A stretch of DNA of 64,000 nucleotides from Mycobacterium branderi. Lineage in GTDB: Bacteria; Actinomycetota; Actinomycetes; Mycobacteriales; Mycobacteriaceae. The notes under the pieces were generated by a model. The model was not told where the DNA came from. It saw nothing but the letters and a program-made list of their open reading frames with translations, and ran no database searches. Below, one piece after another: positions 13,218-40,551 of the stretch. The number at the start of each line of letters is the position of its first letter. The stretch's first letter is position 1. The position numbers were made by a program, and so were the translations under genes. The DNA lies in contig NZ_AP022607.1 in assembly GCF_010728725.1 (NCBI RefSeq), forward strand, positions 248,001 to 312,000, in the 5' to 3' direction.

Positions 13218-13264
13218 GGGCAGCCGGAACGCTGCTTGACCGCAGATTTCGGCGCCAACGCCGG

Positions 13265-14369: not shown

Positions 14370-14425
14370 AGGTGCTGCAAGGCCGTTCGGGCCGCTAAAT
14401 TTCGCCGGCGCCGGCTGTGTGACGG

Positions 14426-25093: not shown

Positions 25094-25791
25094 TCAGCCG
25101 GTGAGGCGCCGGGCTGCGGTCAAGATCCGCCCGACTGTGCTGTGATGGACTTCCAGTCGCCGGCCGATGGTGCTGGGCGGTGTCCCGGCGGCGTGTGCGG
25201 CCAGCACCGCGGCGACGATCGCTGGATCCTTCGACGTGACCCCGCTGCGGACCAGCTCGTCGGCGGCGGGCCTCCACCGCACCACCGCCGCTGAATCCAC
25301 CGAATCCCCGGCCGTGTCCGGAACCGGGGCCAGCAGCCGTTCAGCCGGCTTCGACGATGCGGGCTGCTCGGTGCGCGCAACCTCGCGCCCGGCGCTGCGG
25401 GATTGCGGGCCCGCGGATGGAGCGGCGTCCGCATCTTTCGACATCGTCGACCTGCGGTCGCCGCCCGCGCCACTGCGCTGCCTGCCGGCCGGCTTCGCGC
25501 GGCGCGCGTCGACAGATGCTTTTCGCGGGGGAGTGAGCGACAACAATCCCAACGTCGCGTTGGCGATCGACACATCGATCGCAACCGGCCCCAGCCATGC
25601 CCGATCCGGCAGCATCCCTAACGCCACCGCAAGGTCGCGCAGCGCGTCAAACGACAACACGAATGCACAACCCGTCAAGGCGATCGTCATCGCGAGCGCA
25701 CACCAATAGATGACGCCGGCTCGCCGAGTCTTGACCAGCAGAGCCACCGAATGGGTCGAGGCCAGCAGCACCGCCGGCGGGAACCACGCGG
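25094..25791 (-). pseudogene. 3' part of an interrupted DUF2637 membrane protein gene
   Basis: The sequence encodes the last transmembrane helices of a DUF2637 protein (FPPAVLLASTHSVALLV, YWCALAMTIALTGCAFVLSF, then DRAWLGPVAIDVSIANATL). A charged linker and a C-terminal helix-turn-helix follow (TPPSTIGRRLEVHHSTVGRIL). The first transmembrane helix and start are missing: the frame meets a stop just upstream at the junction near 25791. The missing 57 codons lie at 40381-40551 in the same orientation. DUF2637 proteins are common on actinobacterial plasmids and integrative elements. A short product could start at GTG 25771. Confidence 0.8.
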
Positions 25792-25942
25792 AATTGCATC
25801 AGATGCATGATGTGCTTGGGATGCGAAGTCGATGTTCGACATAGGGAGCGTACTCCAGCGTGATGTGCACGGGGGCTTCCGAACTGCGGGTTTCTGACGT
25901 AGATTGCATGTGATGCACGTTTAGTGCATTGGAAGGTTGGGG

Positions 25943-27064
25943 GTGGTGGGCAGGAAACGCGAATTGCCGGCGCCCGGTTCGGCGCATCTGGAGTTGGCGC
26001 CTGGTGTGCGGCATCTTCATCCCGAGGACGACATGGTGCGGGCGATGTTGTCGGGGTGGGCCAAGCAGCAGTTGGGTGGGCGGTTGTGTGCGGAAAACAC
26101 GGTGAAGGTACGGGCCTCGTGCGTCGGTGAGTTCATCGAGTTTTCGGGAGCGTATCCGTGGGAGTGGACGGCCCGGATGATGGATGAGTGGAGCGCGCAT
26201 CTGGTGGGGTCGCTTTCTCGGGCGAAGTCCACGATCCGTCAGAAGCAGGGCGCGGTCCGGCTGTTCTGTAGCTTCATCACCTCGCCCTATTACGACTGGC
26301 CGACGCAGTGTGAACTGTGGTTCGGCGATCATCCGACGCAGATCTGTCACGAGTGGAACACCTCGGCGCATCTTGTCGATTACGAGGGTGATCCGGGCCG
26401 TCGGCCGTTCACCCGCAAGGAGCTTCAGGATTTCCTTGATTGCGCCGACGCGCAGGTCGAGAAGGCTCGCCGGTCGCGGCGTAAGGGCACGTTGGCCGCC
26501 TATCGGGACACGACGATGTTCAAGGTGATGTACGGCTGGGGTTTGCGGATCAACGAGCTGTGTCGGCTCGATCTGGCCGACATGTATCGCAATCCGCACG
26601 CTCCCGAATTGGGGCAGTGTGGGTTTCTGCATGTCCGGTACGGGAAGGCCTCGCGAGGGTCGCCGCCCAAGAGGCGGACGGTGCCGACGTTGATGCCGTG
26701 GGCGGCGGAGGCACTGTTGGACTATGTCAACAACATTCGACCGTTGTATGAGCCTGGGCAGAAGCAGGCGCTGTGGCTGACCGAACGGCGCTCGCAGGTG
26801 AAGGTGCGGACGTTGACCGGCACCTTCGACGACATCCGGGATGAGGTGGGCTTGGATCGCAAGCTCACCCCGCACTGTTTTCGGCATTCGTTCATCAGCC
26901 ACATGACCGAGGACGGCGTGGATCCACGGTTCCTGCAGGAAATTTCCGGTCACCGGTTCGCCAGTACCACCGGCATCTATACCCATGTCACCGGCGAGTT
27001 CATGAACAAGATGCTCACCGACGCGCTGGGGCGGGTGTCCAGCTTTGGAGAGGGACACCAATGA
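25943..27064 (+). CDS. Tyrosine recombinase/integrase, first gene of the recombinase module
   Basis: The catalytic set is complete: Arg in YGWGLRINELCRLD, a Lys in the VRYGKASRG strand, HCFRHSFISH (H-x-x-R), GH in QEISGHRFAST, and the nucleophile Tyr in GIYTHV. The N-terminal 120 residues form the core-binding SAM-like domain. The GTG at 25943 has GGAAGG 6 bases upstream; 373 residues is normal. Its stop overlaps the next gene (ATGA). It sits 151 bases from the left junction of the inserted block, as integrases usually do, so it is the likely agent of that insertion. Confidence 0.9.
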   Translation: MVGRKRELPAPGSAHLELAPGVRHLHPEDDMVRAMLSGWAKQQLGGRLCAENTVKVRASCVGEFIEFSGAYPWEWTARMMDEWSAHLVGSLSRAKSTIRQKQGAVRLFCSFITSPYYDWPTQCELWFGDHPTQICHEWNTSAHLVDYEGDPGRRPFTRKELQDFLDCADAQVEKARRSRRKGTLAAYRDTTMFKVMYGWGLRINELCRLDLADMYRNPHAPELGQCGFLHVRYGKASRGSPPKRRTVPTLMPWAAEALLDYVNNIRPLYEPGQKQALWLTERRSQVKVRTLTGTFDDIRDEVGLDRKLTPHCFRHSFISHMTEDGVDPRFLQEISGHRFASTTGIYTHVTGEFMNKMLTDALGRVSSFGEGHQ

Positions 27065-27405
27065 CCGCCGATTACCACTGGCATCTGCGCAGGCTGATGG
27101 CCGAACGCGGACTGTTCAACACGACAGCGTTGCGGCCACTGCTGGCCGAACGCGGGGTGCAGCTGTCGGCCAGCCAGGTCTACCGGCTCGTGACCGAGAA
27201 ACCGGAACGGTTGAGCCTGCCCACCCTGGTGGCCCTCGTGGACATTCTGGGGTGTGCGATGGACGAGTTGATCGAGATCGTGCCCGCCACAGCTGCCTCG
27301 GCGAAGAAGGCCGCGGGCGCAGCGGAGCGCAGCAAACCGGTCAGGACGCGGGAACTTGGTGGCCACCGCCCCGTCCGGGCCAAGATCGTCGACGCGGATT
27401 CCTAG
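27061..27405 (+). CDS. XRE/Cro-type small regulator of the recombinase module
   Basis: The N-terminal 80 residues form a Cro/C1-type helix-turn-helix domain: WHLRRLMAERGLFNTTALRPLL, QLSASQVYRLVTEKPERL, then TLVALVDILGCAMDELIEI, which is the common C-terminal cap of this family. The remaining tail is basic (KKAAGAAERSKPVRTREL) and could contact DNA or the large partner protein. The start overlaps the integrase stop by 4 bases. It may act as a directionality or accessory factor of the module as well as a repressor. Confidence 0.8.
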   Translation: MTADYHWHLRRLMAERGLFNTTALRPLLAERGVQLSASQVYRLVTEKPERLSLPTLVALVDILGCAMDELIEIVPATAASAKKAAGAAERSKPVRTRELGGHRPVRAKIVDADS

Positions 27406-27413
27406 GCCGGCGG

Positions 27414-29918
27414 ATGCGCGGAAACCGCAGCGAGTTCGTGACGGTGATCGTCACGGCAGTGGGCGCGATCGAGCCGCACCTGAGCCACGACGATGTCCGC
27501 ACCGCGATCGAGGGGATGGGCCTGTCGGCCGCGCAGTTGCAGAGGCTGTCTAGAACGCTGCGGCGCGACGGTAGCGTGCTCACCGGGCCCGGCGGCAGCG
27601 ACTGCGCCGCCGACATCGAGCCGCTGATCCTGTGTCTGCGCCAACTCGGCGCCATGCGTGTTCGAGCGCCGCGGTGTGCCCTGTGCGGCAATGATTCGGA
27701 AATCTATTCGCGCAAGCTCAAGAAGCGCATCTGCCGAGCCTGTTCGATGCAGGGTTGGCAACCGGCTGTCGGTGAATGCCCGGGCTGCGGCGCGGTGGAC
27801 AAGTTGATCTACCGGCCGCGGCACGGCGATGGCCTGTTGTGTCGGAGGTGCAAGCCCGAACCCGACGTCGATCACGCCGCCAAGGTTCGTGACGGTATCG
27901 CGCAACTGCGGACCGGGCTGTCGGCCACTGAGGTTGACCGGGTGGCGTCGGTGTTCGGCACGGCGGTCGCGCAGCGCGAGCTTAACTGGATCTTGCAGGA
28001 CACCCCCGGAGTGTTTCGCGGTGAGATCGCCCACCGCTCGGCGGTCTCGGTGCGGCTCGCCGAACTACTTGTCGCTGCCGGTGCCGACAATGTGCGCCTT
28101 CCGCAGTGCCCGTTGTGTTTTCGCACCGTGAAGCTCGGCAGCCAGATTGACGGGTTGCGCTGCTGCCATACCTGTTGGGGTCACCACTTCAGCCGCGGCA
28201 CCTGCGCTCGTTGCGGTCGCCAGCGTCACCTCATCAATTATCACGGTGCCGGCGAGCGCCTCTGTCACCGTTGTTTCGAGCATGATCCGGTCAATCATGA
28301 GCCGTGTACACGGTGCGGTCGGGTGGACTTCATCAACCACCATGACGGCCAAGCGAAGCTCTGCCGGCGCTGCTACCCGGCACCCACCGCGGTCTGCAGC
28401 TCGTGCGGACGTACTCGCCCATGCACCCGCACCCGGACGGGAAAGCCCATCTGCGGCACCTGCTCCGCCAAACAACGCCCACCCCAACCCTGTTCGGTAT
28501 GCGGCAACATCCGCTCCGTGCACACCCGGACTGACGCCGGTGAGCCGGTGTGTAACCCGTGCGCACGAAGTCGGGAACCGTGCGCGCGGTGCGGCAAAAC
28601 CCTGGCGGTCTCGGCGCGGCTTGCCGGGGTCGGGCCGCTGTGCTCGGCCTGCCTACTACGTGAACCCGCCTACTTCACCGACTGTGCGCAATGCGGCGCC
28701 CATGGACGCACGTACCACCGTGGGCTGTGCCCGGCCTGCGCCTGTCCCGGTGAGCTCCGCGAATTGTTCGCCAAGAACGGCGAATTGAGCGGCGCCGCCA
28801 GCCGCATCGTCGAGGCGTTGCTGCAATGTGACGCCATGCCGGTGCTGCGATGGGTCAGGCGCATGCGATCGAACAGTGAACTGCCCGCGCAGCTCGCCGA
28901 ACTCGGCGACACCCTCAGCCACCACGACCTCGATGACCTACCGGCCAGCAAATCCGTGGAATGGCTGCGCAACATCCTGGTGAACGCCGAGGTGCTGCCA
29001 CCCCGCGACCCCTATCTGCACCGCACCGAGCAGTACATCGCCGCCCGGCTGGCCACTATCAGCAACCGCGACGATCGTGCAGCCGTCCGCGCATTCACCG
29101 AATGGAATCACCTGCGTAAACTGCGGGCCCGCGCCGACCAAGGACCACTCAAACGCAACCACGGGCTGGCCGCCCAAGCCATGACTGCCGCCATCGTCGA
29201 CTTCGTGTCCGAACTCAACGCGCACGGACTGGCGTTGGCCTCATGCCAGCAAGAGTTTGTCGACGACTGGTTGGTGCGCAACCCCACGCGCCGCCAGATC
29301 CACCAATTCCTCGCCTGGGCGGTCCACCGTGGCTACGCCCACGACGTCGCGGCTCCCGTACCGCAAACCCGCCGCACCCGCCACACCCTGCCCGGCGACG
29401 ACGAACGATGGCGCCTGATCCAATACCTGATCGAACACCCCGATTTGGAGACGCGCGATCGGGTCGCCGGGCTGCTCGTGCTGCTCTACAGCCAACCCGC
29501 AGCCCGCCTGGTCACCCTCAAGGTTGCCGACGTCACCATCACCGACGACGCGGTCCAACTCACCCTCGGCGCGGTCCCGCTCACCGTGCCCAGCCCCGTC
29601 GACCGCCTGCTCGCCGATCTCGTGCAGCAGCGCCGCGGATACGCCGCGGTCACCGTGGGCACCAATCCATGGCTGTTTCCCGGAGGACGCTCCGGTGGGC
29701 ACCTGTCCGCCAACCAAGTGGGGTTGCGGCTCAAACGAATTGGCATCTCCCCCCGGATCGCCCGCAACACCGCGCTGATCGACCTCGCCGGTGAACTGCC
29801 CGCTGTCGTGCTCGCGAAACTCCTCGGGTTCAGCGTCAAACGCGCCGTCACCTGGAGCGAAGAAGCTGGCAACACTCGCCCCCGCTACGCCGCCGAGGTC
29901 GCCCGCCGCAACTCGTGA
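27414..29918 (+). CDS. Large zinc-ribbon protein with a degenerate tyrosine-recombinase domain
   Basis: The 834-residue protein begins 9 bases after the HTH gene. Residues about 80-450 contain a long series of CxxC pairs (CALCGN, CRAC, CPGCG, CRRC, CPLC, CARCGRQRHL and many more), consistent with about eight or more zinc ribbons. The last 200 residues follow the tyrosine-recombinase fold: QPAARLVTLKVADV carries the first Arg and SPRIARNTALIDLA the second. However, LGFSVKRAVTW has Phe where the GH histidine, and Trp where the nucleophilic Tyr, are expected. It is probably a catalytically inactive DNA-binding partner of the first recombinase. Confidence 0.75.
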   Translation: MRGNRSEFVTVIVTAVGAIEPHLSHDDVRTAIEGMGLSAAQLQRLSRTLRRDGSVLTGPGGSDCAADIEPLILCLRQLGAMRVRAPRCALCGNDSEIYSRKLKKRICRACSMQGWQPAVGECPGCGAVDKLIYRPRHGDGLLCRRCKPEPDVDHAAKVRDGIAQLRTGLSATEVDRVASVFGTAVAQRELNWILQDTPGVFRGEIAHRSAVSVRLAELLVAAGADNVRLPQCPLCFRTVKLGSQIDGLRCCHTCWGHHFSRGTCARCGRQRHLINYHGAGERLCHRCFEHDPVNHEPCTRCGRVDFINHHDGQAKLCRRCYPAPTAVCSSCGRTRPCTRTRTGKPICGTCSAKQRPPQPCSVCGNIRSVHTRTDAGEPVCNPCARSREPCARCGKTLAVSARLAGVGPLCSACLLREPAYFTDCAQCGAHGRTYHRGLCPACACPGELRELFAKNGELSGAASRIVEALLQCDAMPVLRWVRRMRSNSELPAQLAELGDTLSHHDLDDLPASKSVEWLRNILVNAEVLPPRDPYLHRTEQYIAARLATISNRDDRAAVRAFTEWNHLRKLRARADQGPLKRNHGLAAQAMTAAIVDFVSELNAHGLALASCQQEFVDDWLVRNPTRRQIHQFLAWAVHRGYAHDVAAPVPQTRRTRHTLPGDDERWRLIQYLIEHPDLETRDRVAGLLVLLYSQPAARLVTLKVADVTITDDAVQLTLGAVPLTVPSPVDRLLADLVQQRRGYAAVTVGTNPWLFPGGRSGGHLSANQVGLRLKRIGISPRIARNTALIDLAGELPAVVLAKLLGFSVKRAVTWSEEAGNTRPRYAAEVARRNS

Positions 29919-30162
29919 TGACGCGATGTCAAGGCCGCCACGGACTGGGCCTCGTCCCCGGGAATGGAACCCTTGCGCAAGGCAGGCGCCGATTATCAGC
30001 CACCTCCTCCTAAGCGGATGGCTCTGTTCCGACAGTCCCGACGAAGTGCAGCCTCGGGATCGTCGTCTCTGGCCGCACCGCTCCGAGGAGCGCGCAGGGT
30101 ACTGTGGAGGGTGTTGAGCGGCATCTCGGTTGAGTGAACACGCTTGACGGAATGGGAAAATC

Positions 30163-30321
30163 ATGAACGGCCCCACGACGTTTCGCACGCCCTACGAAAA
30201 GCGCGTTGAACTCGTCAAACAAACACTGATCACATCGGCGATATTCGACGACGATAGTGCTGGCAAGCTCGCCGTCCAGGTGCTACGTGCGCTGGACTCA
30301 ATTCCTGAGAAGATCCGCTAG
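30163..30321 (+). CDS. Small hypothetical protein, 52 residues
   Basis: ATG 30163 to TAG 30319-30321 encodes a regular, helix-forming peptide with normal mycobacterial codon use: an N-terminal TPYEKRVELVKQTLITSAIF, an acidic turn DDDSAG and a second helix KLAVQVLRALDSIPEKIR. GGGA lies 7 bases upstream of the start. The pattern of two amphipathic helices could fit a small regulator or toxin partner. I do not recognise it. It lies in the gap following the recombinase module. Confidence 0.5.
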   Translation: MNGPTTFRTPYEKRVELVKQTLITSAIFDDDSAGKLAVQVLRALDSIPEKIR

Positions 30322-31685
30322 GCGATTCGTCGACATGCCAGGGGAATCCGACGCGGTGCGATGCTGAGCGCTGTCCGCAGCGTCCGGCCCTGACCCGCCT
30401 GTGTAGGGCATGAGCACGACCGACACGACGGATTGGTTTGGGGCCGGTGTCGGCGGGAACCCGTGGTGCAGCGGCGGATGAGTGGTCGTAATCGAAGTTC
30501 GCCGTTAGGCGTCACAGAAAAAAGCGACCTCGGGTTAAGCAGTCAGCGCGGTTCTGTGGCGTCGCACTTGAATGTCGCGGTCGCGGTCGCACAACGTGTC
30601 AGTCAACCGGGGCCGGTGCCAGAAGAGTCGGCCCCGGTGGGCCGGACCGTTGGTTGACTGGTTGCGCCTGGCTGGGCCCGGGGATAGTACCGGCGATGAC
30701 TGGGAATCGTTGCTTCGCAATACATCTTGGAGAACAGGACACTGCGCGCGATGTCGCACTGTTTCACGTTGGGCTGCCGGGATTGTTCGACGAGTAGGTC
30801 CAGGAGTTTGCTGGGCGTCTAGATTTGGGGTGTTGGCTGACGGCAGCAACAACTGAACAGTGTGTTCAACGTGCAGTCGGAGCTGTTTGCTCGCCTATCA
30901 TCGAGTGATGCATTTATCGGCGCGGTTCGCAGGCGGCGGCACCAGAGGCCACCATTACTGCGGAGCAGGTGCTCGGATCGATGATTTGCATCAATTTGCG
31001 GGGCAACTCAAAACGGGTCGAGGGCCAGGAGACCGATCCGCCGGCGGTGTGGATGCGCCTGGTCGTTCTCGGAGTGAAGTTTCGTGAGGCCTACGGTGTT
31101 GATGCCCGGGTGACCGATCCCGACGTTGAGGGGACGGGCAGCGGCGACGCCAGTCCGGCGCCCGTGTCCTGAACCGGTGATCCGCCGCCGGCTGTTCTGG
31201 ATGTGTTAACGGAAGGTGTTCTCCGACACCGTATTCATCGGACTCTCCCTGTGTGGATGGGTGATCTGAATTCCCTGGGCACTTGCGGCGACGCACTCAG
31301 GGTGGGCCGTTGTCGAGGAGTCGGCAGGGCGGCGTCGGCGTAGTGTGGCCTTTGATGGGTGAGCTGCCGTGCGCCAAAGTGGATGTCGGCTGGTCGGTCG
31401 GTGTGCACCGCGGCCGGCACCAGCGCGACGCGGTGTTGAGGGGGGTGGCTACGGTGGCGGCGTCGCGGTAGTCGAAGGGTCAAGCCCGCCTGACGCCAAC
31501 AGCTATTTGTAAGGCGCCCTTCGTGGTTCCTTCGCACAATCCGTCATATGCGTCCTCGCCTATCGCTATTTTGTGTGACTGCGAGTATCGTTAAACATGT
31601 TGGTGTTCGGTCGTGCAGATTGCCCATGGGGTTTGGAGCATCGATTCATAGATCGATTGGCTCGGCCATAGACGGGAGCGTTCAT
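30322..31685. other. 1.36-kb stretch without a clear gene
   Basis: Base composition drops slightly and no strand keeps a protein-like frame for long. The best candidate is a 64-codon plus-strand frame from ATG 30981 to 31172 (ICINLRGNSKRVEGQ..., VWMRLVVLGVKFREAYGVDA), which could be a small gene but has no good ribosome site. The rest looks like decayed sequence. The promoter of the DUF5994 gene should be at its right end (GGGAG at 31674-31678). Confidence 0.35.
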
Positions 31686-32276
31686 ATGACGCTACGAGCG
31701 GTCGAGAATCCGCAACGGAAGCAGGGCCCGTTCCGTACTCCGAGATTTCGGTTGAAACCCACGGAACCCCAAAGCGGTTATGTTGATGGGGCCTGGTGGC
31801 CCCGCAGCGATGACCTCAGCGCAGAGCTGCCAGACCTGTTGGCAGTGCTCTCGGTGCGCCTGGGCCGCATCGAACGGGTACTCTATCGATTGTCGGACTG
31901 GCGGTCTGCGCCGCGAAAACTCGACGCTGGTGGCGGTCCGGTCAAGTTGGATGGATATGAGCGCCAACCTATCTCAACCGTCAGCCTGCTAGGATCAGGA
32001 TTCCGTCGACTCGATCTGCTGGTCGTGGCTGTGTGCGCGGATGCCTCCGATGCGCATGCGACGATGATGAGGGCCGCACATCCCAGCGACGAGACGTGTG
32101 TAGATCGGCTTCTGGGGATCCAACCGCGCGTCCGAATCAGCTTGGATCGGGCTGGCGTTGCCCAGCAGCGCTGGGCTTCAGGGATCTCCAAACCACGCAG
32201 TGCTTTCCCGAATTCCCATCCGGCGAAGGCTTCTGAAGAATGGGATGCTGGCGATATCGCCAGGGATCGGATTTGA
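31686..32276 (+). CDS. DUF5994 family protein
   Basis: The ATG at 31686 has GGGAG 7 bases upstream. The 196-residue protein contains the family core PRFRLKPTEPQSGYVDGAWWPRSDDLSAELPDLLAVLSVRLGRIERVLYRLSDW. A second conserved region (KLDGYERQPISTVSLLG, then DLLVVAVCADASDAHATMMRAA) follows. It is cytoplasmic and soluble; the function of DUF5994 is unknown. The last 60 residues differ from the paralogue at 32533-33078. A 67-residue gene follows after 2 bases and is presumably co-transcribed. Confidence 0.8.
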   Translation: MTLRAVENPQRKQGPFRTPRFRLKPTEPQSGYVDGAWWPRSDDLSAELPDLLAVLSVRLGRIERVLYRLSDWRSAPRKLDAGGGPVKLDGYERQPISTVSLLGSGFRRLDLLVVAVCADASDAHATMMRAAHPSDETCVDRLLGIQPRVRISLDRAGVAQQRWASGISKPRSAFPNSHPAKASEEWDAGDIARDRI

Positions 32277-32278
32277 CC

Positions 32279-32482
32279 ATGACTGTGCAAGTAACCCGCA
32301 ACGATGGGCTCACTGATGAGTTTGCGCGCTTCGGTGACCGCTACGTCAAGCACGCCGACGGGTCGTTGGAGGTTGTCCGTGCTGGAACAATGCAGCCCGT
32401 GACCTATCCGGTGGGCGGCTGGACTGAGGTGGCCGGTGACGAGAAGCGGAAGCGGCACGGGCTGTTTCGTCACCGCTCATAG
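32279..32482 (+). CDS. Small hypothetical protein downstream of DUF5994
   Basis: This 67-residue protein starts 2 bases after the DUF5994 stop, so translation is probably coupled. It has a beta-rich middle (FARFGDRYVKHADGSLEVVRAGTMQPVTY) and a strongly basic tail (KRKRHGLFRHRS). I do not recognise the family. The pairing with DUF5994 suggests a shared role, but nothing more can be said. Confidence 0.6.
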   Translation: MTVQVTRNDGLTDEFARFGDRYVKHADGSLEVVRAGTMQPVTYPVGGWTEVAGDEKRKRHGLFRHRS

Positions 32483-32532
32483 TGCCCGGCATGTCCTCCC
32501 TCGGATGCGGGGCCGCGGGCGAGGTTCCGGCG

Positions 32533-33078
32533 TCAGCCGGGGAGCTGCGCCAGCCGTGGGGAAGCTGTAGTTCCGCCTTCTGATTCCCAGCGTTCTTGTG
32601 CGGTGGAGGCCTGGGTGCGGCTGTCCCGGTCTCGCTGGCTGATCGTGAGCAATCCGTCGACGGTCGCGGCGTTGCGAGGTTGTGCCGCGGTCATCATGGT
32701 GCGGTGGGCGTCGTTCGCGTCGGTGTCGGGCGGAATCACCAATAGCGTGAGTCGGTCACCCTCGAGCCCGAGAACTTCGATGGTGTTGATCGGCTGAAGC
32801 CGGTACCCGTCTAGGCGTACCGCCCGTCCTCCGGTGGCGAGCTTTCGTGGCGCGTCCGCCCAGGCGTTCAGGTGGTATAGCACTCGGTCGATGCGGCCCA
32901 GGCGCACCGAGAGCACTGCCAACAGGTCTGGCAGCTCTGCGCTGAGGTCATCGCTGCGGGGCCACCAGGCGCCATCGACATAGCCGCTTTGGGGTGCTTT
33001 GGGTTTTAACCGGAGGCGCGGCGTGCGCGCCGGCACGATGGTGTTCTGATCGTTTCTGCGTGTCTGCTGTGGCGTCAT
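32533..33078 (-). CDS. DUF5994 family protein, second copy
   Basis: The ATG at 33078 has GGGAG 7 bases upstream. The 181-residue protein shares long identical stretches with 31686-32276 (GYVDGAWWPRSDDLSAELPD, LLAVLSVRLGRI, then RKLATGG, VRLDGY, NDAHRTMMTAAQP) and diverges elsewhere. The two genes face each other with the 67-residue gene and about 50 bases between them. This arrangement suggests an inverted duplication followed by divergence. Its function is unknown. Confidence 0.8.
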   Translation of the reverse strand: MTPQQTRRNDQNTIVPARTPRLRLKPKAPQSGYVDGAWWPRSDDLSAELPDLLAVLSVRLGRIDRVLYHLNAWADAPRKLATGGRAVRLDGYRLQPINTIEVLGLEGDRLTLLVIPPDTDANDAHRTMMTAAQPRNAATVDGLLTISQRDRDSRTQASTAQERWESEGGTTASPRLAQLPG

Positions 33079-33252
33079 GGCGACGCTCCCATCTGGACCG
33101 CGTGATGCGGCCATATCACTTCGAATCAGCGATGCCACACTCGAACTGGCTGTGTGTACGAAATACCACCGATGGTGTTGATCCTACGCCGGTCCAGCTC
33201 CGAATGGAGGCCGCGGTCTAGCGATTTGTTTGCGCCGTGCCGACGGTGGCTC

Positions 33253-34407
33253 TCAGCCCCCGTCAGATCCATTACGACGGGTTGCCAACGTACCGTGGGC
33301 GCCGGGCGCGACGGCGGCGGTCTCGGCGATGAGGTGATCCACGACGTCGAACAGGTCATTGCGCGTGCGCATGGCGCGACGCTGCCTGGCCGCCGAGCTG
33401 CCCTGCGTAAGAGCCTTGCGCGCCAGGCCCTCAACGGCCTGCCAATCCCCGGATGCCTCCAGCTGTGGGCGGAGCATCTGGACCAAGTCGGTAACCACAT
33501 CGCCGGCGGGGCGACTCGCCGGATGTATCAAGTCCACCAGGTCACCTTCCAGTCCTGACCGGACGGCTCGCCACAGCGCGGCACGGCCGAGCGGGGGCAC
33601 CACTATGGCGGCAGGCACTCCGGTGCGTAGTCCCTGGATCTCGCGTTCGACGAGCGCGCGGAATAGCGCCGTGATGAGCACAATGGTGTCGGCGCGTGGA
33701 CAGCTATCGCACACGCGCAGTTCCAAGGTGGGAGTTCGCAGGGCGGGGCGAACGTCGAAATACGACATCCCCGCATCGGTGATCACTCCGGTCGCAATGA
33801 GATTGGAGATCAACGTGTCGTACTCCGCGGCTGACGTGGCCGGAGGCGCTAATCCGGTGGTCGGCCATCGCTGCCATACCAATGTTCGGACGCTGCTGTA
33901 GCCGGTGTCAGATCCGTCGGACCAGAACGGCGAACTCGCGCTCAAGGCAAGCAGAGTGGGAACATAGGCGGCTACCCGACCGGCCACCAGGACAGATTCA
34001 TCACGGTCGTCGATTCCCACGTGTATCTGGGTTCCACAGATCAGTTGTTCGCGTGCCAACAGCTGATAGTCGGCAAGCATCTGCTGATAACGGGAAGTCT
34101 GGGTCACGTGCATCTCGCTGGGCACCGACAACGGAACCGCCCCAGCGGCAACCACGCCCAACCCGAGCGTAGCGGCGGTATCGACGAGGACTCGACGCCG
34201 CTCAGTCAGATCGGCCCGCAGTTCCGCAAGCGTACTGACCACACTGCCGTTGGTCTCCACGACACAGCTCTGCAATTCGGCCACATAACCGTCAGACAGC
34301 AGTCCAAGCAGCTCTGGTGCCCGCGGTGCCAGCCGCCGGGTGGTGAGGTCGACAAGGTGGAACTCTTCCTCTATGCCGACCGTCCGGGGCATCGTGGATA
34401 ATGTCAA
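33253..34407 (-). CDS. Carboxylate-amine ligase / glutamate-cysteine ligase type 2 (YbdK-like)
   Basis: RTVGIEEEFHLVD is the ATP/metal-binding signature of the GCS2 family. VVETNGSVVSTLAELRADL, GTQIHVGI and DVRPALRTPTLELRVCDSCP follow in the usual order. Length (384) matches bacterial YbdK-type proteins and the M. tuberculosis homologue I recall as Rv0433. These enzymes form gamma-glutamyl or other amide bonds with ATP; the true substrate in mycobacteria, which make mycothiol instead of glutathione, is not known. It stands in a run of minus-strand genes with small stress-type proteins. Confidence 0.85.
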   Translation of the reverse strand: MTLSTMPRTVGIEEEFHLVDLTTRRLAPRAPELLGLLSDGYVAELQSCVVETNGSVVSTLAELRADLTERRRVLVDTAATLGLGVVAAGAVPLSVPSEMHVTQTSRYQQMLADYQLLAREQLICGTQIHVGIDDRDESVLVAGRVAAYVPTLLALSASSPFWSDGSDTGYSSVRTLVWQRWPTTGLAPPATSAAEYDTLISNLIATGVITDAGMSYFDVRPALRTPTLELRVCDSCPRADTIVLITALFRALVEREIQGLRTGVPAAIVVPPLGRAALWRAVRSGLEGDLVDLIHPASRPAGDVVTDLVQMLRPQLEASGDWQAVEGLARKALTQGSSAARQRRAMRTRNDLFDVVDHLIAETAAVAPGAHGTLATRRNGSDGG

Positions 34408-34623
34408 TTGTCTTGGCTTTCCTTGTGATCGGCATTCACATGCTCATGGGGCGCATGTCGGAAAGTATCCATCGTGTCCGCTCGGTCCCATTGGGTCGTC
34501 GAGCTGCTCAGGGAGGTTCGGCGACGCGTTGTGGCGGACGCCGTCCCGTTGAGGCAGGCCCCATGCTGGGGTCGCTCAGATGTCGGCTTCTGACCGCGCG
34601 CAGTGCTGAGGTCGGCGGCCTCG

Positions 34624-34809
34624 TCAGCCCACGCCTCGCGCTGTCGAAATCGCGGTGGGTCTCCCTGTTTGACGGATTGGTGGGTGTTGTCGGGCGCCGC
34701 AGGGGCGAACTTTGCGGTGTTTGTTGCCCGCTACCCATGCGAAGATTGCGATGGGCACGGTCGTGGCGAACACGACGAGTACGACGAAAACGGCACTGCT
34801 GGTGGACAT
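34624..34809 (-). CDS. Small single-pass membrane protein
   Basis: The ATG at 34809 has AAGGAG 6 bases upstream. The 61-residue protein has one N-terminal helix (SSAVFVVLVVFATTVPIAIFAWVAG) and a basic, Pro/Arg-rich cytoplasmic tail. It resembles other very short mycobacterial membrane peptides that cluster with CsbD and DUF6131 genes. Function unknown. Confidence 0.6.
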   Translation of the reverse strand: MSTSSAVFVVLVVFATTVPIAIFAWVAGNKHRKVRPCGARQHPPIRQTGRPTAISTARGVG

Positions 34810-34976
34810 ATCGGCTCCTTGCGAGTTGGTGAGGCATGAGTTCTGCACGCAGCGTGGCGGTTTGGTCGGTGCCATCTGCGGCTGTGCAGTCTCGAAGTGG
34901 TAGTGCTCGACTGTCGGGTCACGGGGCCGATCGTGGCCGTCGACTCGATGCCGTCGGCCACCGACCCACGGGCCGG

Positions 34977-35156
34977 TCAGTAGTAGTGACGCCGGCCGCC
35001 GATGGCGTGACCGGTGCGCCCCATCAGCATGAGTAGCAGGCCCACGACCAGCAGGATGACCCCGATGACCAGGACAACATGGGCGAACGCGAATGTGGGG
35101 GCAAGGCTCGGGAGGAGCAGCCCCAAAACAATAAGGACAATTCCGAAGATGATCAT
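34977..35156 (-). CDS. DUF6131-like two-helix membrane peptide
   Basis: ATG 35156 to TGA 34977-34979 encodes 59 residues with two hydrophobic helices (IIFGIVLIVLGLLLPSLAP and HVVLVIGVILLVVGLLLML) and the C-terminus GRTGHAIGGRRHYY. This pattern is the one I know as DUF6131 in mycobacteria. TTAGG lies 6-10 bases upstream of the start. It is located between the carboxylate-amine ligase and CsbD genes, a typical stress-associated neighbourhood. Confidence 0.75.
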   Translation of the reverse strand: MIIFGIVLIVLGLLLPSLAPTFAFAHVVLVIGVILLVVGLLLMLMGRTGHAIGGRRHYY

Positions 35157-35205
35157 GATAGTTACCTAAGTCTCGTGGAGATGATCGGGGCGGATGTGCC
35201 CGGGA

Positions 35206-35379
35206 TCAGTGTTTGAAAGCGTCATTGAGCTTGTCGCCTGCCTGTTTGGCGTTGCCTTTGACATGGCCGGCGCGTCCCTCGGCCCGCATGCCGGTGTTGC
35301 CGGTGGCGCGGCCGAAGACCTTCTTCGCGCTGCCCTTGGCGGCTTCGAACTTGTGGGCAATCTTTGCAGCCACTCTCAT
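35206..35379 (-). CDS. CsbD family stress protein
   Basis: The ATG at 35379 has AAGGAG 6 bases upstream. The 57-residue protein is the CsbD pattern: a Lys/Ala-rich helix KFEAAKGSAKKVFGRATGN followed by AEGRAGHVKGNAKQAGDKLNDAF. CsbD proteins are small, soluble and induced by general stress. The ATG overlaps the TGA of the upstream minus-strand frame (35376-35720). Confidence 0.85.
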   Translation of the reverse strand: MRVAAKIAHKFEAAKGSAKKVFGRATGNTGMRAEGRAGHVKGNAKQAGDKLNDAFKH

Positions 35380-35720
35380 TGCGGACTCCTTGGGTTCTCG
35401 GTGTTCATAACCCGCGAACGCGGGATGAAGACATGGGCGAGACTGGTTGCCGGGCGAGCCAGCGACATCTCCAGATCGTGGCGGGCGGCTCGCCCTGTCC
35501 CGCGGAACGCCGTACACCGGCTGGCTGCACGCTCAAGCCGAGCGTCGAAATGCGCCAACGAAGACCCCGAGGACGGAGGGGTGCGCGTCGGCGCGGTGAT
35601 GTCATCGCCGAATGCGGCGCCATTCGCGGCCGATAGGCCAGCGAGCCCGTGTTGGTCAGCACCCCGGTGAACCCCACGACCACCGGCGAGCAAGGCAACC
35701 GGTCCAACGATGTCGATCAT
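35376..35720 (-). pseudogene. Possible frameshifted small gene ahead of csbD
   Basis: The frame from ATG 35720 starts plausibly (MIDIVGPVALLAG), then becomes irregular. The next frame over continues with a membrane-like VVVGFTGVLTNTGSLAY. A small membrane peptide broken by a one-base shift explains this. It overlaps csbD by ATGA, but that may be chance. Confidence 0.3.
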
Positions 35721-35844
35721 GGCGGCGCCTCTACTGATGCTTAGAAGTCCAGTACACGCCACATCGTCGAGCTTGTCAACGGTGTATATCTACGGCATAG
35801 ACATACTGTGTCAACAGCCTGGAGGTGACTCGGCATTGCGATGT

Positions 35845-35861
35845 CTACAGTGTAGGCCTAC
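35845..35861. promoter_or_regulatory. Palindromic operator candidate of the TetR gene
   Basis: CTACA-G-TGTAG (35845-35855) overlaps the perfect palindrome GTAGGCCTAC (35852-35861), 46 bases before the TetR start. Related words (TATCTACGGCATAGACATA) occur about 60 bases upstream. This is a typical place for an autoregulatory TetR site. Confidence 0.5.
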
Positions 35862-35906
35862 GGTGGAGATCAACACTGGAGATACGCCCGGAAGGCGGCA
35901 GCATCC

Positions 35907-36680
35907 ATGACCCAACCACCAGCAGGCCTTGCAAGTTCCGCGCCCGAATCCCGCAACAACGAGGCCGACGGTGAGAGCAGGCCGATCACCCGTGCGGCGG
36001 TCCTGGCCAGCGCCCTGGAGATCATTGACCGCGACGGCGTCGACGGGCTCTCGATGCGGCGGCTCGGCGAGGCCGTCGGGCGCGACCCGATGGCACTGTA
36101 TCGGCATGTGCCGAACAAGGCCGCGGTGCTCGACGGCGTCGTCGAGATGGTCTTCGAACGGCTTTCGCTGGACACCACAACGCCGGACTGGGCCGCTGCA
36201 CTACGCAAGCTCGGCCACGAATTCCGAGATCTGGCACGTGCGCACCCCAACGTGGTGCCGTTGTTGGTCACCCGGCCGCTGGCCACACCGCTTGGGATGC
36301 GCCCACCGGGAATCCTGCGGCATCTCGAAGAGGTTCTGACCCTGCTCATCGGGGCCGGGTTCACCGGGGAGGACGCGTTGCACGTCTACCGGGCGTTGTT
36401 CGGGTTCCTGTACGGGCACGTACTTACCGAACTGCAGGAAATCGTCGAGCGGCCGGAGGAAACCGACCACGTCTTGCGGCTGGGTCTACACCGGCTTCCG
36501 ATCGACCAGTTTGGGCACCTACGCGAACTCGCACCGGTCTGGGCTTCCTACGACCCACTGGCTGAACTCGACCGCGGACTCGACATTCTGCTCAGCGGAC
36601 TGGCCGTGCGCCTCACGATCCCCGGCGCCGCTCCCGCGGACACCACCGAGCCTCAACAAGGCGACCACGAACGGACGTGA
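35907..36680 (+). CDS. TetR/AcrR family regulator
   Basis: The N-terminal domain (about residues 25-80) has the TetR helix-turn-helix: ITRAAVLASALEIIDRDGVDGLSMRRLGEAVGRDPMALYRHVPNKAAVLDGV. The C-terminal helical ligand-binding domain (GLHRLPIDQFGHLRELAP) is of the TetR_C type. A GGAAGGCGG site precedes the ATG. The fatty acid desaturase gene begins 55 bases downstream on the same strand, so the regulator probably controls it together with itself in response to a lipid or other hydrophobic ligand. Confidence 0.88.
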   Translation: MTQPPAGLASSAPESRNNEADGESRPITRAAVLASALEIIDRDGVDGLSMRRLGEAVGRDPMALYRHVPNKAAVLDGVVEMVFERLSLDTTTPDWAAALRKLGHEFRDLARAHPNVVPLLVTRPLATPLGMRPPGILRHLEEVLTLLIGAGFTGEDALHVYRALFGFLYGHVLTELQEIVERPEETDHVLRLGLHRLPIDQFGHLRELAPVWASYDPLAELDRGLDILLSGLAVRLTIPGAAPADTTEPQQGDHERT

Positions 36681-36735
36681 CCTCGATGACACGCAGCAAG
36701 CTTTCCAAACTCACCGTCGTTCTGTGCGAATAGGT

Positions 36736-37923
36736 ATGACCCCCAAACTATTTGCAGACTTGGGCAAGACGACGATGGCGATAACAGACGCAGCCGAATA
36801 CGCTCACCTGCGGGAGGTGGACCTCGAGGCGCTTGGTGTCGCACTGGAGGCAATCCGTCGCGACATCGAGAATTCGCGCGGTGAACAAGATCGGACATAC
36901 ATTCAGCGGGCCATCGCGTTTCAGCGCGGCCTCGACCTCGCGGCACGGCTTGTGATCGCCGCCAGCCGAAGCGGGCCCGGCTGGGCACTGGGAACCGCCG
37001 CGCTGGCCACCGCGAAGAGCATCGAGAACATGGAGCTCGGTCACAACATCTGCCACGGTCAATGGGATTGGATGAACGACCCGGAAATCCACTCCAGCAC
37101 CTGGGAGTGGGACATGGTCGGCGTCTCCTCACAGTGGCGCTATGCCCACAACTACCGCCACCACGTGTTTACGAACGTCATCGGCGAGGACGACGACCTC
37201 GGATACGGCATCATGCGGGTCACCCGTGATCAGCAGTGGCGGTGCAGCAATCTATTGCAGCCGCTACGAAGCGTATTGCTGGCCATCATGTTCGAGTGGG
37301 GCATCGCGCTGCAGGGTTGGGAGTCGCAGCAGAAGCGCGCCGCCAAGTCCGCGCTCACCCGAGCCTTGGTGCAGAAAGTGGCGTGCCAGGCCGGCAAGGA
37401 CTATCTGATCTTTCCCGCGCTGAGTCTTCGACGATGGCGCCGCACGCTCACCGCGAACGCGGCCGCCAACCTGCTGCGAAATGTGTGGGCCTACGTGGTG
37501 ATCTGCTGCGGACACCTCGGCGAGGACACACAGAAGTTCGCGCCCGACGCACTGAACGATGAGTCCAAATCCGAATGGTATCTGCGACAAATGCTTGGCA
37601 CTGCGAACTTCCGCGCCGGGCCGGTGTTGGCATTCCTCAGCGGAAACCTCTGCTACCAGATTGAGCATCACCTCTTTCCGGATCTCCCGAGCAACCGCTA
37701 CGCGCAGATCGCACCACAAGTGCGGTCCATATGCGCACGCTTCGACCTGCCGTACACGACCGGTCCGCTCGCACGCCAATACCTAGGGACCGTGCGCACC
37801 ATCTTCAAGCTCGCACTCCCGGATCGGCTTCCCGCCCCCGATGCTGACGGAATGGACGCCCACAAACCTGACCACCTCGATGACGCACACCAGACAATGA
37901 AGGTCGGATCCACCGCTATTTAG
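36736..37923 (+). CDS. Membrane fatty acid desaturase
   Basis: All three histidine boxes are present: ELGHNICHGQWDW, RYAHNYRHHVFTN and QIEHHLFPDLPSNRY. They bind the di-iron centre that inserts a double bond in an acyl chain. The ATG at 36736 gives 395 residues. Hydrophobic segments around residues 70-92 and 175-188, plus those between boxes two and three, fit the usual membrane core. It resembles acyl-CoA desaturases of the DesA3/linoleoyl-CoA type. It follows a TetR gene, as mycobacterial desaturases often do. The substrate chain and position of desaturation cannot be read from sequence. Confidence 0.87.
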   Translation: MTPKLFADLGKTTMAITDAAEYAHLREVDLEALGVALEAIRRDIENSRGEQDRTYIQRAIAFQRGLDLAARLVIAASRSGPGWALGTAALATAKSIENMELGHNICHGQWDWMNDPEIHSSTWEWDMVGVSSQWRYAHNYRHHVFTNVIGEDDDLGYGIMRVTRDQQWRCSNLLQPLRSVLLAIMFEWGIALQGWESQQKRAAKSALTRALVQKVACQAGKDYLIFPALSLRRWRRTLTANAAANLLRNVWAYVVICCGHLGEDTQKFAPDALNDESKSEWYLRQMLGTANFRAGPVLAFLSGNLCYQIEHHLFPDLPSNRYAQIAPQVRSICARFDLPYTTGPLARQYLGTVRTIFKLALPDRLPAPDADGMDAHKPDHLDDAHQTMKVGSTAI

Positions 37924-38123
37924 ACAGTCCCAGCCTCTCGGATTCGGGTGCGTACTGATGTTCCCGCTCGTCGAGGTGATGCGGCAGGGCTGTTTCGAGG
38001 AACGCCGTTTGATGACACGGCCTAGTCTGGGTCTCAGGTTCATGTGGACGTGGCCAAGCTCGGAGGCAGGCAGCGCAGCAGGCCCGGCGCACTCGAAGTC
38101 GGCCCGATCCCAGGAGGGCACAA

Positions 38124-38648
38124 ATGTTTACATTCCTCAAACCCATCGCGGGTTTCCGCGTGACGTTTTCGGCGATGTTCAAGAAGCCAGTCACTGAGGG
38201 GTATCCGGAGAAGCCGGGCCCGGTGGCGCCGCGCTACCACGGCCGCCATCAGCTCAACCGATGGCCCGACGGGTTGGAGAAGTGCATCGGGTGTGAGCTG
38301 TGCGCGTGGGCCTGCCCGGCCGACGCGATTTTCGTGGAGGGCGCCGATAACACCGAGGCCGAACGTTTTTCGCCGGGCGAGCGCTACGGGCGGGTGTATC
38401 AGATCAATTACCTGCGCTGCATCGGCTGCGGGTTCTGCATCGAGGCTTGCCCGACGCGGGCCCTGACGATGATCAACGACTACGAAATGGCCGACGACAA
38501 CCGCGCCGACCTGATCTACGGCAAGGACCAGCTGCTGGCGCCACTGCAGCCCGGTATGGCGGCCCCGCCGCACCCGATGGCGCCTGGCAGCACCGAACGC
38601 GACTACTACCTCGACAACATCGCCGCGGCGAACAGGGAAGCCCGGTGA
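38124..38648 (+). CDS. nuoI: Orphan NADH-quinone oxidoreductase subunit I (NuoI)
   Basis: The two 4Fe-4S motifs [12 protein letters not shown] and [12 protein letters not shown], plus the N-terminal [25 protein letters not shown] and the C-terminal LLAPLQPG, are those of complex I subunit NuoI. The ATG has GGAGGG 5 bases upstream. At 174 residues it is full-length, somewhat shorter at the C-terminus than chromosomal mycobacterial NuoI as I recall it. No other nuo gene is intact here, so it cannot make a complex alone. It is either a relic of a transferred operon or a spare subunit. Confidence 0.9.
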
Positions 38649-38830
38649 CCACGTCGTTGACCGCGGACACGCGGACCCGTACCTCCGCCAAACGAAGTGA
38701 TGCTGTTGGCGTCGGGCGTTGCGCTCTGTTGGCCGTCGCTGAGTATGCAGATGATGCCGTCACTGTCGGTGCGGACGTGATATCGGGAGTTGGTCTGCAA
38801 AGTGACGGGTTGGTCGGCGCGGCGACGTGA
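38645..38830 (+). pseudogene. Possible remnant of a gene that followed nuoI
   Basis: A GTG overlaps the nuoI stop (GTGA), as expected for the next gene of a nuo operon. The first residues ([17 protein letters not shown]) might derive from the start of NuoJ, but no membrane helices follow and the frame ends at 38830. This is a weak inference: the break would mark where the transferred nuo segment ends. Confidence 0.25.
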
Positions 38831-38988
38831 TGGTCGTCGTGGTGACGGGCGCCGGCGGGGTGCCGAACGGCGCTCCCGATGGCTCGCGGGGGCCATGATG
38901 AGGCTCAGGCCGGTGGCGACAAGAGGCGACCTCGGGTGTAGGCCCGATCAGGGTCCAGGGCGGGTCGTCGATGCCCTACCGGTGGCGT

Positions 38989-39493
38989 TCACAGTAGGCG
39001 GCTGCCGACAGGATCGACAACGCGTGATGCAGCAGGTTGCGGTGTTGCGCAGCGAACATCAGGGTCCAGTTCCAGTGGCTGTCGGGTGGCGCCTTGGTAG
39101 ATGCGTTCCAGGTGTGCCGCTGGTAGGCGCCGCAGCCAGCGCCGCACCGTGGACACGGGCCGATCGACGGCGACCGCGATGCGCCGGGTGTCGAAGTCCA
39201 TTTGGCTTGTGCAGCAATGCTGTTCCGATCGCCGCGGTGGTGTCGGCGTGACGTGGTTGCAGGGCTGCGGGTATCACGCTATGCGTTGATGAGCACGATC
39301 GCATCGGGTGCGAGGGGGTCGCACCGTCACCGTGGTGCTGTCGCGGTCGCGCACGGTGCGCCGCCGGCCCGTATCCCCAGGCGACCAGCTGGCCGGGGCG
39401 GCAGCGCGGGCAGCGTAGTTCGCCGTCGGCGAGTAGGTGCTCGGCGAGTTCGGCGGTGCGGGCAACGATCACCGTGCAGCCAGTCCATGACAC
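38989..39493 (-). pseudogene. Frameshifted Cys-rich/helix-turn-helix protein (DUF6431-like transposon gene)
   Basis: Read on the minus strand, three frames in turn give a coherent protein. First comes VIVARTAELAEHLLADGELRCPRC...GQLVAWGYGPA, then STHSVIPAALQPRHADTTAAIGTALL, then DTRRIAVAVDRPVSTVRRWLRR, a helix-turn-helix. The order of zinc ribbon, CxxC-less beta part and HTH is that of DUF6431 proteins that accompany transposases. At least two one-base shifts disrupt it. A further piece at 38606-38860 on the same strand (VTLQTNSRYHVRTDSDGIIC) may belong to another decayed gene. Confidence 0.6.
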
Positions 39494-39643
39494 ATCAGCC
39501 TTGCCTATCGCCCGCGGGCGGGTACAGGGGTCAGTTCGTGTTGGACGACACCAGATTTGGATCAGCCGCCGTCACTGCCGCCGACGACCAGACGAATCTC
39601 CACTGCGCCGAGACCGAATCGGCAAGTTGGTGGCGCCGCCGGA

Positions 39644-39729
39644 CAGCCGGGCCGATCGTGGGCACAGTGATGATGCAGACGACGGTCAGCCGGGCCGATC
39701 GTGGGCACAGTGATGATGCAGACGACGGT
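39644..39729. repeat. Perfect 43-bp tandem duplication
   Basis: The 43-base unit beginning CAGCCGGGCCGATCGTGGGC occurs twice end to end (39644-39686 and 39687-39729), followed by the first bases of a third. It lies between decayed genes and looks like a recent slippage or VNTR-type event. Confidence 0.9.
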
Positions 39730-39818
39730 CAGCCCCGACATCGGTTATCGGCAAGACAAATGATAAATATCCCGCCGTGGTCGTCACACACAGGGACGGT
39801 CAACAATCGTGTCGGAGC

Positions 39819-40130
39819 TCACCGTCTCGGATCGCCACGATTGAGCGGACAGCAGCTGTCCGAACGTGTCCGCGAAGTCGCGGGAACCCAGGTCGAAATC
39901 GATATGGCTGGCCGACAATGCCATCCCCAGCAGCGCTGCCAACAGCATCTCCACAATCGTGGCAGGCTCGGTTTCGAGGACAGCTCACCGGTGTCGAGGG
40001 CATCGGTGAGCGCCCACGACAAGAACCGTCTGCGGCCGGCCACCAGGCCGTGCTCGGCGGCGACGAGTTCGGGGTGGCGCCGCGACTCGAGCGCCGAGGT
40101 CACAAGGAACGCCGCCCCGGACCGATCCTC
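39819..40130 (-). pseudogene. C-terminal fragment of a TetR-type regulator
   Basis: The minus strand encodes VTSALESRRHPELVAAEHGLVAGRRRFLSWALTDALDTGELSS, a helical segment typical of TetR ligand-binding domains. One frame over it continues TIVEMLLAALLGMALSASHIDFDL and FADTFGQLLSAQ. A frameshift near 39975 separates them, and no DNA-binding domain is found upstream. It is a decayed regulator at the right end of the inserted block. Confidence 0.5.
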
Positions 40131-40353
40131 GGACCGCGGGTGCCGCTACACACGCTCCACGCTCAGCTGTCGCGGATCCACGCCTTCAGGTAACCCGGCT
40201 GCCGAACGGTGCTCTGAATCCGTTGTGCAACAAGAACATCGATGGCCATAACCGCACGCCCCACCGTTAGCAGGTTGTACACGAAGGGCGGAGTCCGCCG
40301 ACACGGCCATGCCAGTACCGGGATATCTGCCCGAACGCGCTATTCGGACGATT

Positions 40354-40551
40354 TCAATAACGCCAGTTACCAATTACCACCGCGGCGGCGGCCGCGAGCT
40401 TCACCATTCCGCTCGGCGCGTTCAAGATTGCATGCGCCACATTGCCCGCCACCGAGACACCCGCCGCCAGGATCAGCCACGCCCAGAAAAAGCGCGCCGC
40501 ACCACGTGTCGTGGCGTCGATCCCCCGCGTGCCGTCGGTCGCCGTGCTCAT
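40354..40551 (-). pseudogene. 5' part of the interrupted DUF2637 gene
   Basis: The ATG at 40551 has AAGGAG just upstream. The sequence encodes a polar N-terminus and the first DUF2637 transmembrane helices (ARFFWAWLILAAGVSVAGNVAHA, then MVKLAAAAA). After codon 57 (GCG at 40381-40383) the homology stops and a foreign tail of 8 residues follows. The continuation, starting TGG-TTC-CCG, is at 25786 in the same orientation. Confidence 0.8.

What the first reader, a model, noticed from the sequence alone, without database searches (positions are those of the whole stretch)
25787..40551. A 14.6-kb block inserted into a DUF2637 gene and restored in frame by its removal
The 5' part (40381-40551) and 3' part (25094-25791) of one DUF2637 gene lie in the same orientation. 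Both junctions carry CGCGG, and deletion of 25792-40380 yields one continuous 287-codon frame. A recombinase module starts 151 bases from the left end. This defines the ends of a probable mobile island that carries desaturase, TetR, DUF5994, CsbD and carboxylate-amine ligase cargo.
Basis: partly seen in the sequence, partly recalled or inferred. Interest (0 to 1): 0.85.

Follow-up and report, generated by a model that had tools for sequence, protein, structure and literature searches.

The report
Mobile island splitting a plasmid gene
A block of about 14.6 thousand bases in a probable mycobacterial megaplasmid is a mobile element that has inserted cleanly at one exact point of a gene, and close relatives of it sit at the same point of different versions of that gene in other mycobacteria.

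Summary
The split DUF2637 gene is real. Uninterrupted homologues carry both parts with the same spacing (22 of 32 colinear ORFs, nearest ones included). An island 98.8-99.7% identical over aligned pieces sits in a different DUF2637 gene of Mycobacterium parascrofulaceum; two diverged sisters (recombinase 81% and 75%) sit at that codon too. These four are the only recombinases of at least 75% identity found in 396 sampled genus genomes. The module is one active-type tyrosine recombinase, a small HTH protein, and an 834-aa zinc-ribbon protein ending in a recombinase-like fold with Trp at the catalytic Tyr position. This trio recurs in 72 of 74 related loci, nearly all actinobacterial, and matches the briefly described 'XER modules' of Arthrobacter plasmids. 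Corrections: the deletion coordinates in the finding's text are off by five, and CGCGG is not a target duplication. The left junction carries about 8 nt that belong to the element; the right keeps the host's own. A constant tag at the recombinase end suggests strand-biased exchange, mirrored relative to SE/Tn554 elements. Cousins insert just after the catalytic-tyrosine codon of other recombinase genes (18 of 66 scorable loci).

The parts
40376..40551 (-). 5' part of the host DUF2637 gene; 40376-40383 are the host's own bases kept at the right junction
   Evidence: matches intact homologues; boundary by comparison with three sister insertions
25094..25781 (-). 3' part of the host DUF2637 gene (membrane segment plus C-terminal HTH-like region)
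   Evidence: PF10935 E 6e-8; HTH matches are below Pfam's cut-offs
25782..25789 (+). element-borne left tag AACCACGC, identical in the M. parascrofulaceum copy; coding sense does not fit the host family
   Evidence: length set by the cousin L224/L242 comparison; could be off by 1-2 nt
25790..25936 (+). left terminus: conserved GGAATTGCATC end, three GATGCA/TGCATC sites, region upstream of the recombinase gene
25937..27064 (+). active-type tyrosine recombinase (375 aa), R-K-HxxR-H-Y residues present
   Evidence: PF00589 E 1e-25; alignment; XerA/XerD chains in PDB
27061..27405 (+). small Cro/C1-type HTH protein (114 aa), ATGA overlap with the recombinase gene
   Evidence: PF13443 E 4e-14
27414..29918 (+). 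834-aa protein: CxxC zinc-ribbon array, C-terminal tyrosine-recombinase-like fold with Trp814 where the catalytic Tyr would be
   Evidence: phrog_1 E 1e-5; 38-sequence alignment; AlphaFold model mean pLDDT 84, pTM 0.41; Foldseek top hits XerH/XerA, E 5e-5 to 2e-4, TM by target 0.36-0.46
31548..32276 (+). cargo: DUF5994 protein
32533..33138 (-). cargo: second DUF5994 protein
33253..34407 (-). cargo: GCS2 / YbdK-type carboxylate-amine ligase
35209..35364 (-). cargo: CsbD domain
   Evidence: G000:C2:283209-283364
35907..36680 (+). cargo: TetR-family regulator
36511..37923 (+). cargo: fatty acid desaturase (ORF as listed; it overlaps TetR, so the true start is probably further in)
38124..38648 (+). 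cargo: NuoI-like ferredoxin subunit
   Evidence: NF004537, 308 bits over a cut-off of 163
40370..40375 (+). right terminus of the element (CCAATT; shared with the M. parascrofulaceum copy)
21955..22926 (+). ParA-type ATPase near the target gene (probable plasmid backbone)

Best explanation
25782-40375 is a cargo-carrying mobile element of the 'tyrosine recombinase + HTH + zinc-ribbon pseudo-recombinase' family. Its recombinase recognises a conserved coding motif in DUF2637 genes and inserts the circular element there. Shown: the ends, the recurrence at the same codon in four different DUF2637 genes, the trio, and (in a cousin with a close intact relative) an interruption with no host bases duplicated or lost. 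Inferred: circular intermediate; the active recombinase does the cutting; the pseudo-recombinase and HTH assemble or orient the complex; the same strand is used for circularisation and integration, so the element keeps its own short tag at the recombinase end and the host bases stay at the other end. Removal is inferred to leave the gene in phase whichever junction tract remains, because the two tracts are equally long.
For: Spacing of intact homologues. Copy at 98.8-99.7% identity over aligned pieces in a different DUF2637 gene of M. parascrofulaceum (named). Sisters in M. attenuatum MK41 and a Mycobacterium MAG at the same site. The 4 recombinases of at least 75% identity among 396 sampled genomes (at most 4 candidates scored per genome) are all at DUF2637; the next is 56%, and no DUF2637 part was found in its 19-kb locus. 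Trio in 72 of 74 loci. Left tags identical while right junctions differ: window and M. parascrofulaceum; M. attenuatum and the MAG; cousin sets (3, 2 and 2 flanks). In a cousin, an uninterrupted relative with 96% protein identity (L242) shows the host bases contiguous at the insertion point of L224.
Against: No circle, empty-site PCR or movement was observed. The nearest intact DUF2637 homologue is only about 63% identical, so the exact end in the window rests on codon fit and on the cousin element. One of the four right tracts encodes Cys, a residue not seen at that place in the 27 intact rows. An insertion without target duplication by another enzyme would look alike; an IS110-family transposase gene lies 0.55 kb outside the right end (40924-42150), though it is not inside the element. 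One of four compared G229 copies was not independent, and the three G150 copies gave no left-end information.
Confidence: 0.85

Rival explanations
1. Ordinary phage-type integration: identical short core repeats at both ends (CGCGG), conservative double-strand exchange.
For: A 5-base match at both window junctions; a tyrosine recombinase gene next to the end. In register the M. parascrofulaceum junctions also share most positions (6 of 8).
Against: In register the match shrinks to GC in the M. attenuatum insertion, and the junction tracts differ in all four insertions. In cousins the two tracts share little.
Confidence: 0.12
2. SE/Tn554-like copy-out copy-in with the published polarity: host bases at the recombinase end, bases brought in from the donor at the far end.
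For: Gene-specific target, unequal spacers, a recombinase relative without the catalytic Tyr in the operon; the SE and Tn552-II papers describe unequal 6-7 bp spacers.
Against: Polarity is reversed here: the tag at the recombinase end is shared between insertions in different host genes and does not fit the host family, while the far junction fits intact relatives in three of four DUF2637 cases and in the L224 and L225 cousins. No intA-tfp-intB-srap or tnpABC gene set.
Confidence: 0.15
3. A regulated, programmed excision element that switches the DUF2637 gene on, like elements that rebuild a host gene.
For: Same gene family hit four times; the two parts stay in phase.
Against: The four host genes differ, the M. 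attenuatum cargo differs by DNA comparison, and cousins hit other genes. Selection on the 3' parts was not tested.
Confidence: 0.05

Closest known systems
XER modules of Antarctic Arthrobacter plasmids (PMC6305408, passages read)
   Same: Core of a tyrosine recombinase, an XRE regulator and a third recombinase-like gene, variable cargo, plasmid-borne, inserted in a gene region (umuCD). pA8H1 has int and HTH in the same order next to a DUF4113 gene (no third core gene is annotated in that PLSDB table).
   Different: Target DUF2637 instead of umuCD; the third protein here has zinc ribbons and lacks the catalytic Tyr; ends and host/element bases were not defined in the passages read.
[quoted passage not shown]
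   Same: Gene-specific insertion, unequal short spacers at the two ends, recombinase relative without catalytic residues (Tfp) in the operon.
   Different: Gene set intA-tfp-intB-srap; reported only in Gammaproteobacteria; host bases at the recombinase end and brought-in bases at the far end, the reverse of what is seen here.
Tn554-related elements incl. Tn552-II (PMC12486829, passages)
   Same: Tyrosine recombinases, unequal spacers at the two ends, 7-bp spacer biased in the circle.
   Different: tnpABC gene set; brought-in spacer on the right.
GInts (PMC5385486, passages) and RIT elements (described in PMC10214605 and PMC8138268, passages)
   Same: Multi-gene recombinase operon; GInts carry cargo, recur in ssb, and GinC lacks a conserved Arg.
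   Different: GInts have ginABCD, the archetype RIT three recombinases with catalytic Tyr; here one active-type recombinase plus HTH plus zinc-ribbon pseudo-recombinase.

Membership tests
XER module | tyrosine recombinase, XRE-type HTH and a third recombinase-like gene in a row | tested here: met
   trio in 72 of 74 related loci
XER module | variable cargo | tested here: met
   window and M. parascrofulaceum share cargo; M. attenuatum shows no DNA match to the window's cargo
XER module | insertion in umuCD | tested here: not met
   target is DUF2637; the published set may simply have another preference; cousins L165, L169 and L178 lie in umuC-like genes (by eye from translations)
SE | intA-tfp-intB-srap operon | tested here: not met
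   one active-type recombinase, HTH, 834-aa protein
SE | host spacer at the recombinase end, brought-in spacer at the far end | tested here: not met
   reverse polarity in the window and cousins
SE | strand-biased circular intermediate | not testable with these tools
   needs circle-joint sequencing
RIT | three recombinases each with catalytic Tyr | tested here: not met
   Trp at the catalytic position in 36 of 38 aligned ORF3 relatives (2 gaps)
Tn554-related | tnpA, tnpB, tnpC | tested here: not met
   no second active-type recombinase in the module; homology to TnpC was not tested
GInt | ginABCD operon | tested here: not met
   three-gene module with an HTH gene in second place; GinC-like degeneracy is only analogous; no direct comparison with Gin proteins was made
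ICE/IME | own relaxase or conjugation genes in the element | tested here: not met
   none among the element ORFs scanned with Pfam (not every ORF was scanned); a TrwC relaxase is elsewhere on the same contig
DUF2637 (PF10935) | profile match of the interrupted gene | tested here: met
   3' part over the cut-off (33.1 vs 22.8 bits); the 5' part has no match alone but hits the same genes

The most novel reading that the evidence does not exclude
A widespread actinobacterial transposon family, with one active and one catalytically dead recombinase, inserts without target duplication using the same strand for circularisation and integration, so that it carries a fixed tag at its recombinase end. 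It aims at short conserved coding motifs of genes that often belong to plasmids and other mobile elements: DUF2637 in this clade, and in a sister clade the codons right after the catalytic tyrosine of rival recombinase genes.
Probability: 0.45. Interest if true: 0.78.

Novelty: new variant of a known kind. Interest (0 to 1): 0.58.

Why it matters
It gives exact ends, a target rule and an architecture to an element family that I found described only briefly, in Arthrobacter plasmids. It also shows a spacer polarity opposite to that reported for SEs and Tn554-type elements, so the question of how such multi-protein recombinase transposons choose strands can be tested by sequencing circle joints. 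A habit of inserting into plasmid genes and rival recombinases would make them parasites of other mobile elements.

Tried and rejected
No tRNA in the window. One plasmid record matched 22000-46000 by megablast, over a 539-bp toxin-antitoxin stretch only. No viral contig matched the six peptide patterns used. No terminal inverted repeat beyond a 5-mer, which 497 of 500 shuffles equal or exceed. No anti-phage family hit for the six proteins scanned. Papers: DUF2637 occurs in one paper of the library, seen only as a listing. Searches on the trio, the spacer, SEs, recombinase classes, XER modules, insertion in integrase genes and umuC targets gave PMC6305408 as the only description of this trio that I noticed; that the target rule and polarity are not in print rests on those searches of an open-licence library only. 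A 5- or 6-nt reading of the tag (notes) was replaced by 8 nt, counting GC. A first regex for the cousin integrase gave nothing and was widened (19 of 26 loci hold the motif, 9 distinct). One search counts strict signatures only: 19 of 66 hits, of which 18 at 11 nt; the 19th (L129, 14 nt) is probably spurious. The 18 are not all independent (L138 and L158 have the same host motif), and seven of the 88 loci tried were multi-copy genus loci that I had chosen. 22 of the 88 were dropped for no recognisable left end or too short a flank. Longest-ORF host calls are often the wrong frame and were not counted.
Full report
1. The observation. The window is C2:248001-312000 of a two-contig genome (5.98 Mb; C2 864,257 bp). 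Both 16S matches are on C1. C2 carries a TrwC relaxase (a second one is on C1) and, in the window, a ParA ATPase, so C2 looks like a megaplasmid (inference). The 3' part of a DUF2637 gene lies at 25094-25791 and the 5' part at 40381-40551, both on the minus strand. Searched apart in 198 genus genomes, the 3' part hit 54 genomes (E up to 0.001) and the 5' part 44 (E up to 0.01), own genome included, with largely the same genes on top: G131:C2, G100:C121, G033:C76, G162:C311. Of 37 ORFs holding both parts, 32 are colinear and 22 of those have exactly the expected spacing; 6 are +1 codon, 2 are -1, 1 is -2 and 1 is -30. A search of 396 genomes found nearest intact homologues at about 63%. DUF2637 hits lie on small secondary contigs (for example 113 kb in G131) and also on chromosome-sized contigs (for example G004:C1, G087:C1).

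2. Corrections. The part coordinates as printed are not a whole number of codons, and the frame read from 25791 is closed. The finding's own start field, 25787, gives the right register. CGCGG is not a duplicated target.

3. Sister insertions. In M. parascrofulaceum ATCC BAA-614 (handle G100, contig C114, 105,475 bp, the same length as the named scaffold) DNA pieces 98.8-99.7% identical match window 25761-27533, 27585-39481 and 40086-40377. By translation the island lies within another, diverged DUF2637 gene: a C-terminal part starts at the same point on the left, an N-terminal part ends at the right (the C-terminal part was too diverged to be found with P0002). A stretch of about 605 bp, 39481-40086, is missing there. 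Outside the island the 38 kb fetched match the window only over 539 bp (82%, the toxin-antitoxin stretch) and 616 bp (66%). In M. attenuatum MK41 (G057) and a Mycobacterium MAG (G162) diverged sisters, recombinase 81% and 75% identical, are at the same site. In G162 the two ends are on different contigs, so their belonging together is inferred. Among 396 genomes (at most 4 candidates scored in each) 40 had a recombinase match at E up to 1e-100, of which only these four are at least 75% identical; the next is 56%, with no DUF2637 part in its locus.

4. Ends. In coding sense the left junction reads GATGCAATTCC-GC-tag-host, and the right junction host-GC-tract-AATTGG or a variant. The tags after GC are shared by the window and M. 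parascrofulaceum, and by M. attenuatum and the MAG, although the host genes differ; the right tracts all differ. In intact homologues the two residues before the conserved PP were V, L or A, then V, in 20 of 20 scored. Seven more rows where the script's pattern missed PP read VV, IA, AA, TA, TA, VA, VA by eye. Three of the four right tracts give a residue seen there and the fourth (Cys, M. parascrofulaceum) does not; the left tags give residues seen in none of the 27. In a cousin, L224, an uninterrupted relative (L242, protein 96% identical) has the host bases contiguous exactly where L224 is interrupted, so nothing is duplicated or lost and 8 bases before GGAATTGC belong to the element. The residues after the catalytic Tyr in nine distinct relatives (19 of 26 loci) agree at their start with L224's and L225's right junctions, not with their left tags. 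Transferred to the window this puts the ends at 25782 and 40375. Cousins agree on a constant left end with varied right flanks: three distinct flanks of four G229 copies, two of two in G202, two of two in G156, and a set of six (98.1-99.9% to the reference) plus one 81-84% element (L171 and L173 have near-identical flanks and count once). The three G150 copies did not show the left end.

5. Machinery. The recombinase has the full R-K-HxxR-H-Y set (residue assignment from general knowledge of the family). The HTH gene overlaps it. The 834-aa protein has a long CxxC array and a C-terminal recombinase-like fold: phrog_1 E 1e-5; model mean pLDDT 84 but pTM 0.41, so domains are better than their arrangement; the Foldseek top hits include XerH, XerA and the Brujita integrase, with modest TM-scores (0.35-0.46 by target among the first nine rows). 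Trp replaces the catalytic Tyr in 36 of 38 aligned sequences (2 gaps). A profile search of PDB sequences gave no recombinase among 29 matches up to E 1 (best: GATA-type zinc fingers, E 0.0098). Of 196 loci found, 80 were kept; 74 of these have 4 kb to the right and 72 hold all three genes (L185 and L186 lack ORF3). They span Streptomyces, Rhodococcus, Nocardia, Microbacterium and others; one is a MAG labelled Acidobacteria.

6. Mechanism. Shown: gene-specific, repeated insertion; clean to the base in the cousin. Inferred: circle, strand bias, accessory role of the dead recombinase. The published SE and Tn552-II patterns put host bases at the recombinase end and brought-in bases at the far end. 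Here it is the reverse, and the tag seems to be carried for long, since diverged sisters still share it. Using one and the same strand for circularisation and integration would do this.

7. Known kinds. The closest is the XER module of Arthrobacter plasmids. SE, Tn554, RIT and GInt gene sets are not met.

8. Sister lineage. In 18 of 66 loci with a scorable left end, the end lies exactly 11 nt after the catalytic-Tyr codon of another recombinase gene; by the L224 comparison 8 of these 11 are tag and 3 are host. This is outside the finding but may be the more striking rule.

Noticed in passing
L132, L137, L138, L139, L147, L151, L153, L156, L158, L162, L163, L167, L175, L219, L221, L223, L224, L225: Cousin elements sit exactly 11 nt (to GGAATTGC or GAAATTGC) after the catalytic-tyrosine codon of other, diverse tyrosine-recombinase genes (18 of 66 scorable loci; L138 and L158 share a host motif).
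   Followed up: partly
L165, L169, L178 and L154, L168, L183: Further cousins are in umuC-like and DprA-like genes (by eye from translations, names recalled, no profile search), echoing the umuCD target in Arthrobacter plasmids.
   Followed up: partly
window 40924-42150: An IS110-family transposase gene lies 0.55 kb outside the right end of the island.
   Followed up: no
window 38124-38648: A NuoI-like gene among the cargo, over the NCBIfam cut-off; no other complex I gene was among the element ORFs scanned.
   Followed up: no
L099 (G087:C1:3296001-3315000): A region of another genome's 7.6-Mb contig carries the ORF3 end and much of the cargo at about 67-94% DNA identity, partly rearranged; no match to the recombinase in that stretch: perhaps a decayed island.
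   Followed up: no
window 39481-40086: About 605 bp near the right end are absent from the M. parascrofulaceum copy; a 43-bp tandem repeat lies at 39640-39734.
   Followed up: no
L101 (G162:C311) 8300-9790: The MAG's right end lies about 450 bp before a second, intact DUF2637 gene.
   Followed up: no
window 4132-14380: M48 peptidase, PPE-like and DUF4226 genes near by, which may point to a type VII secretion region (inference).
   Followed up: no
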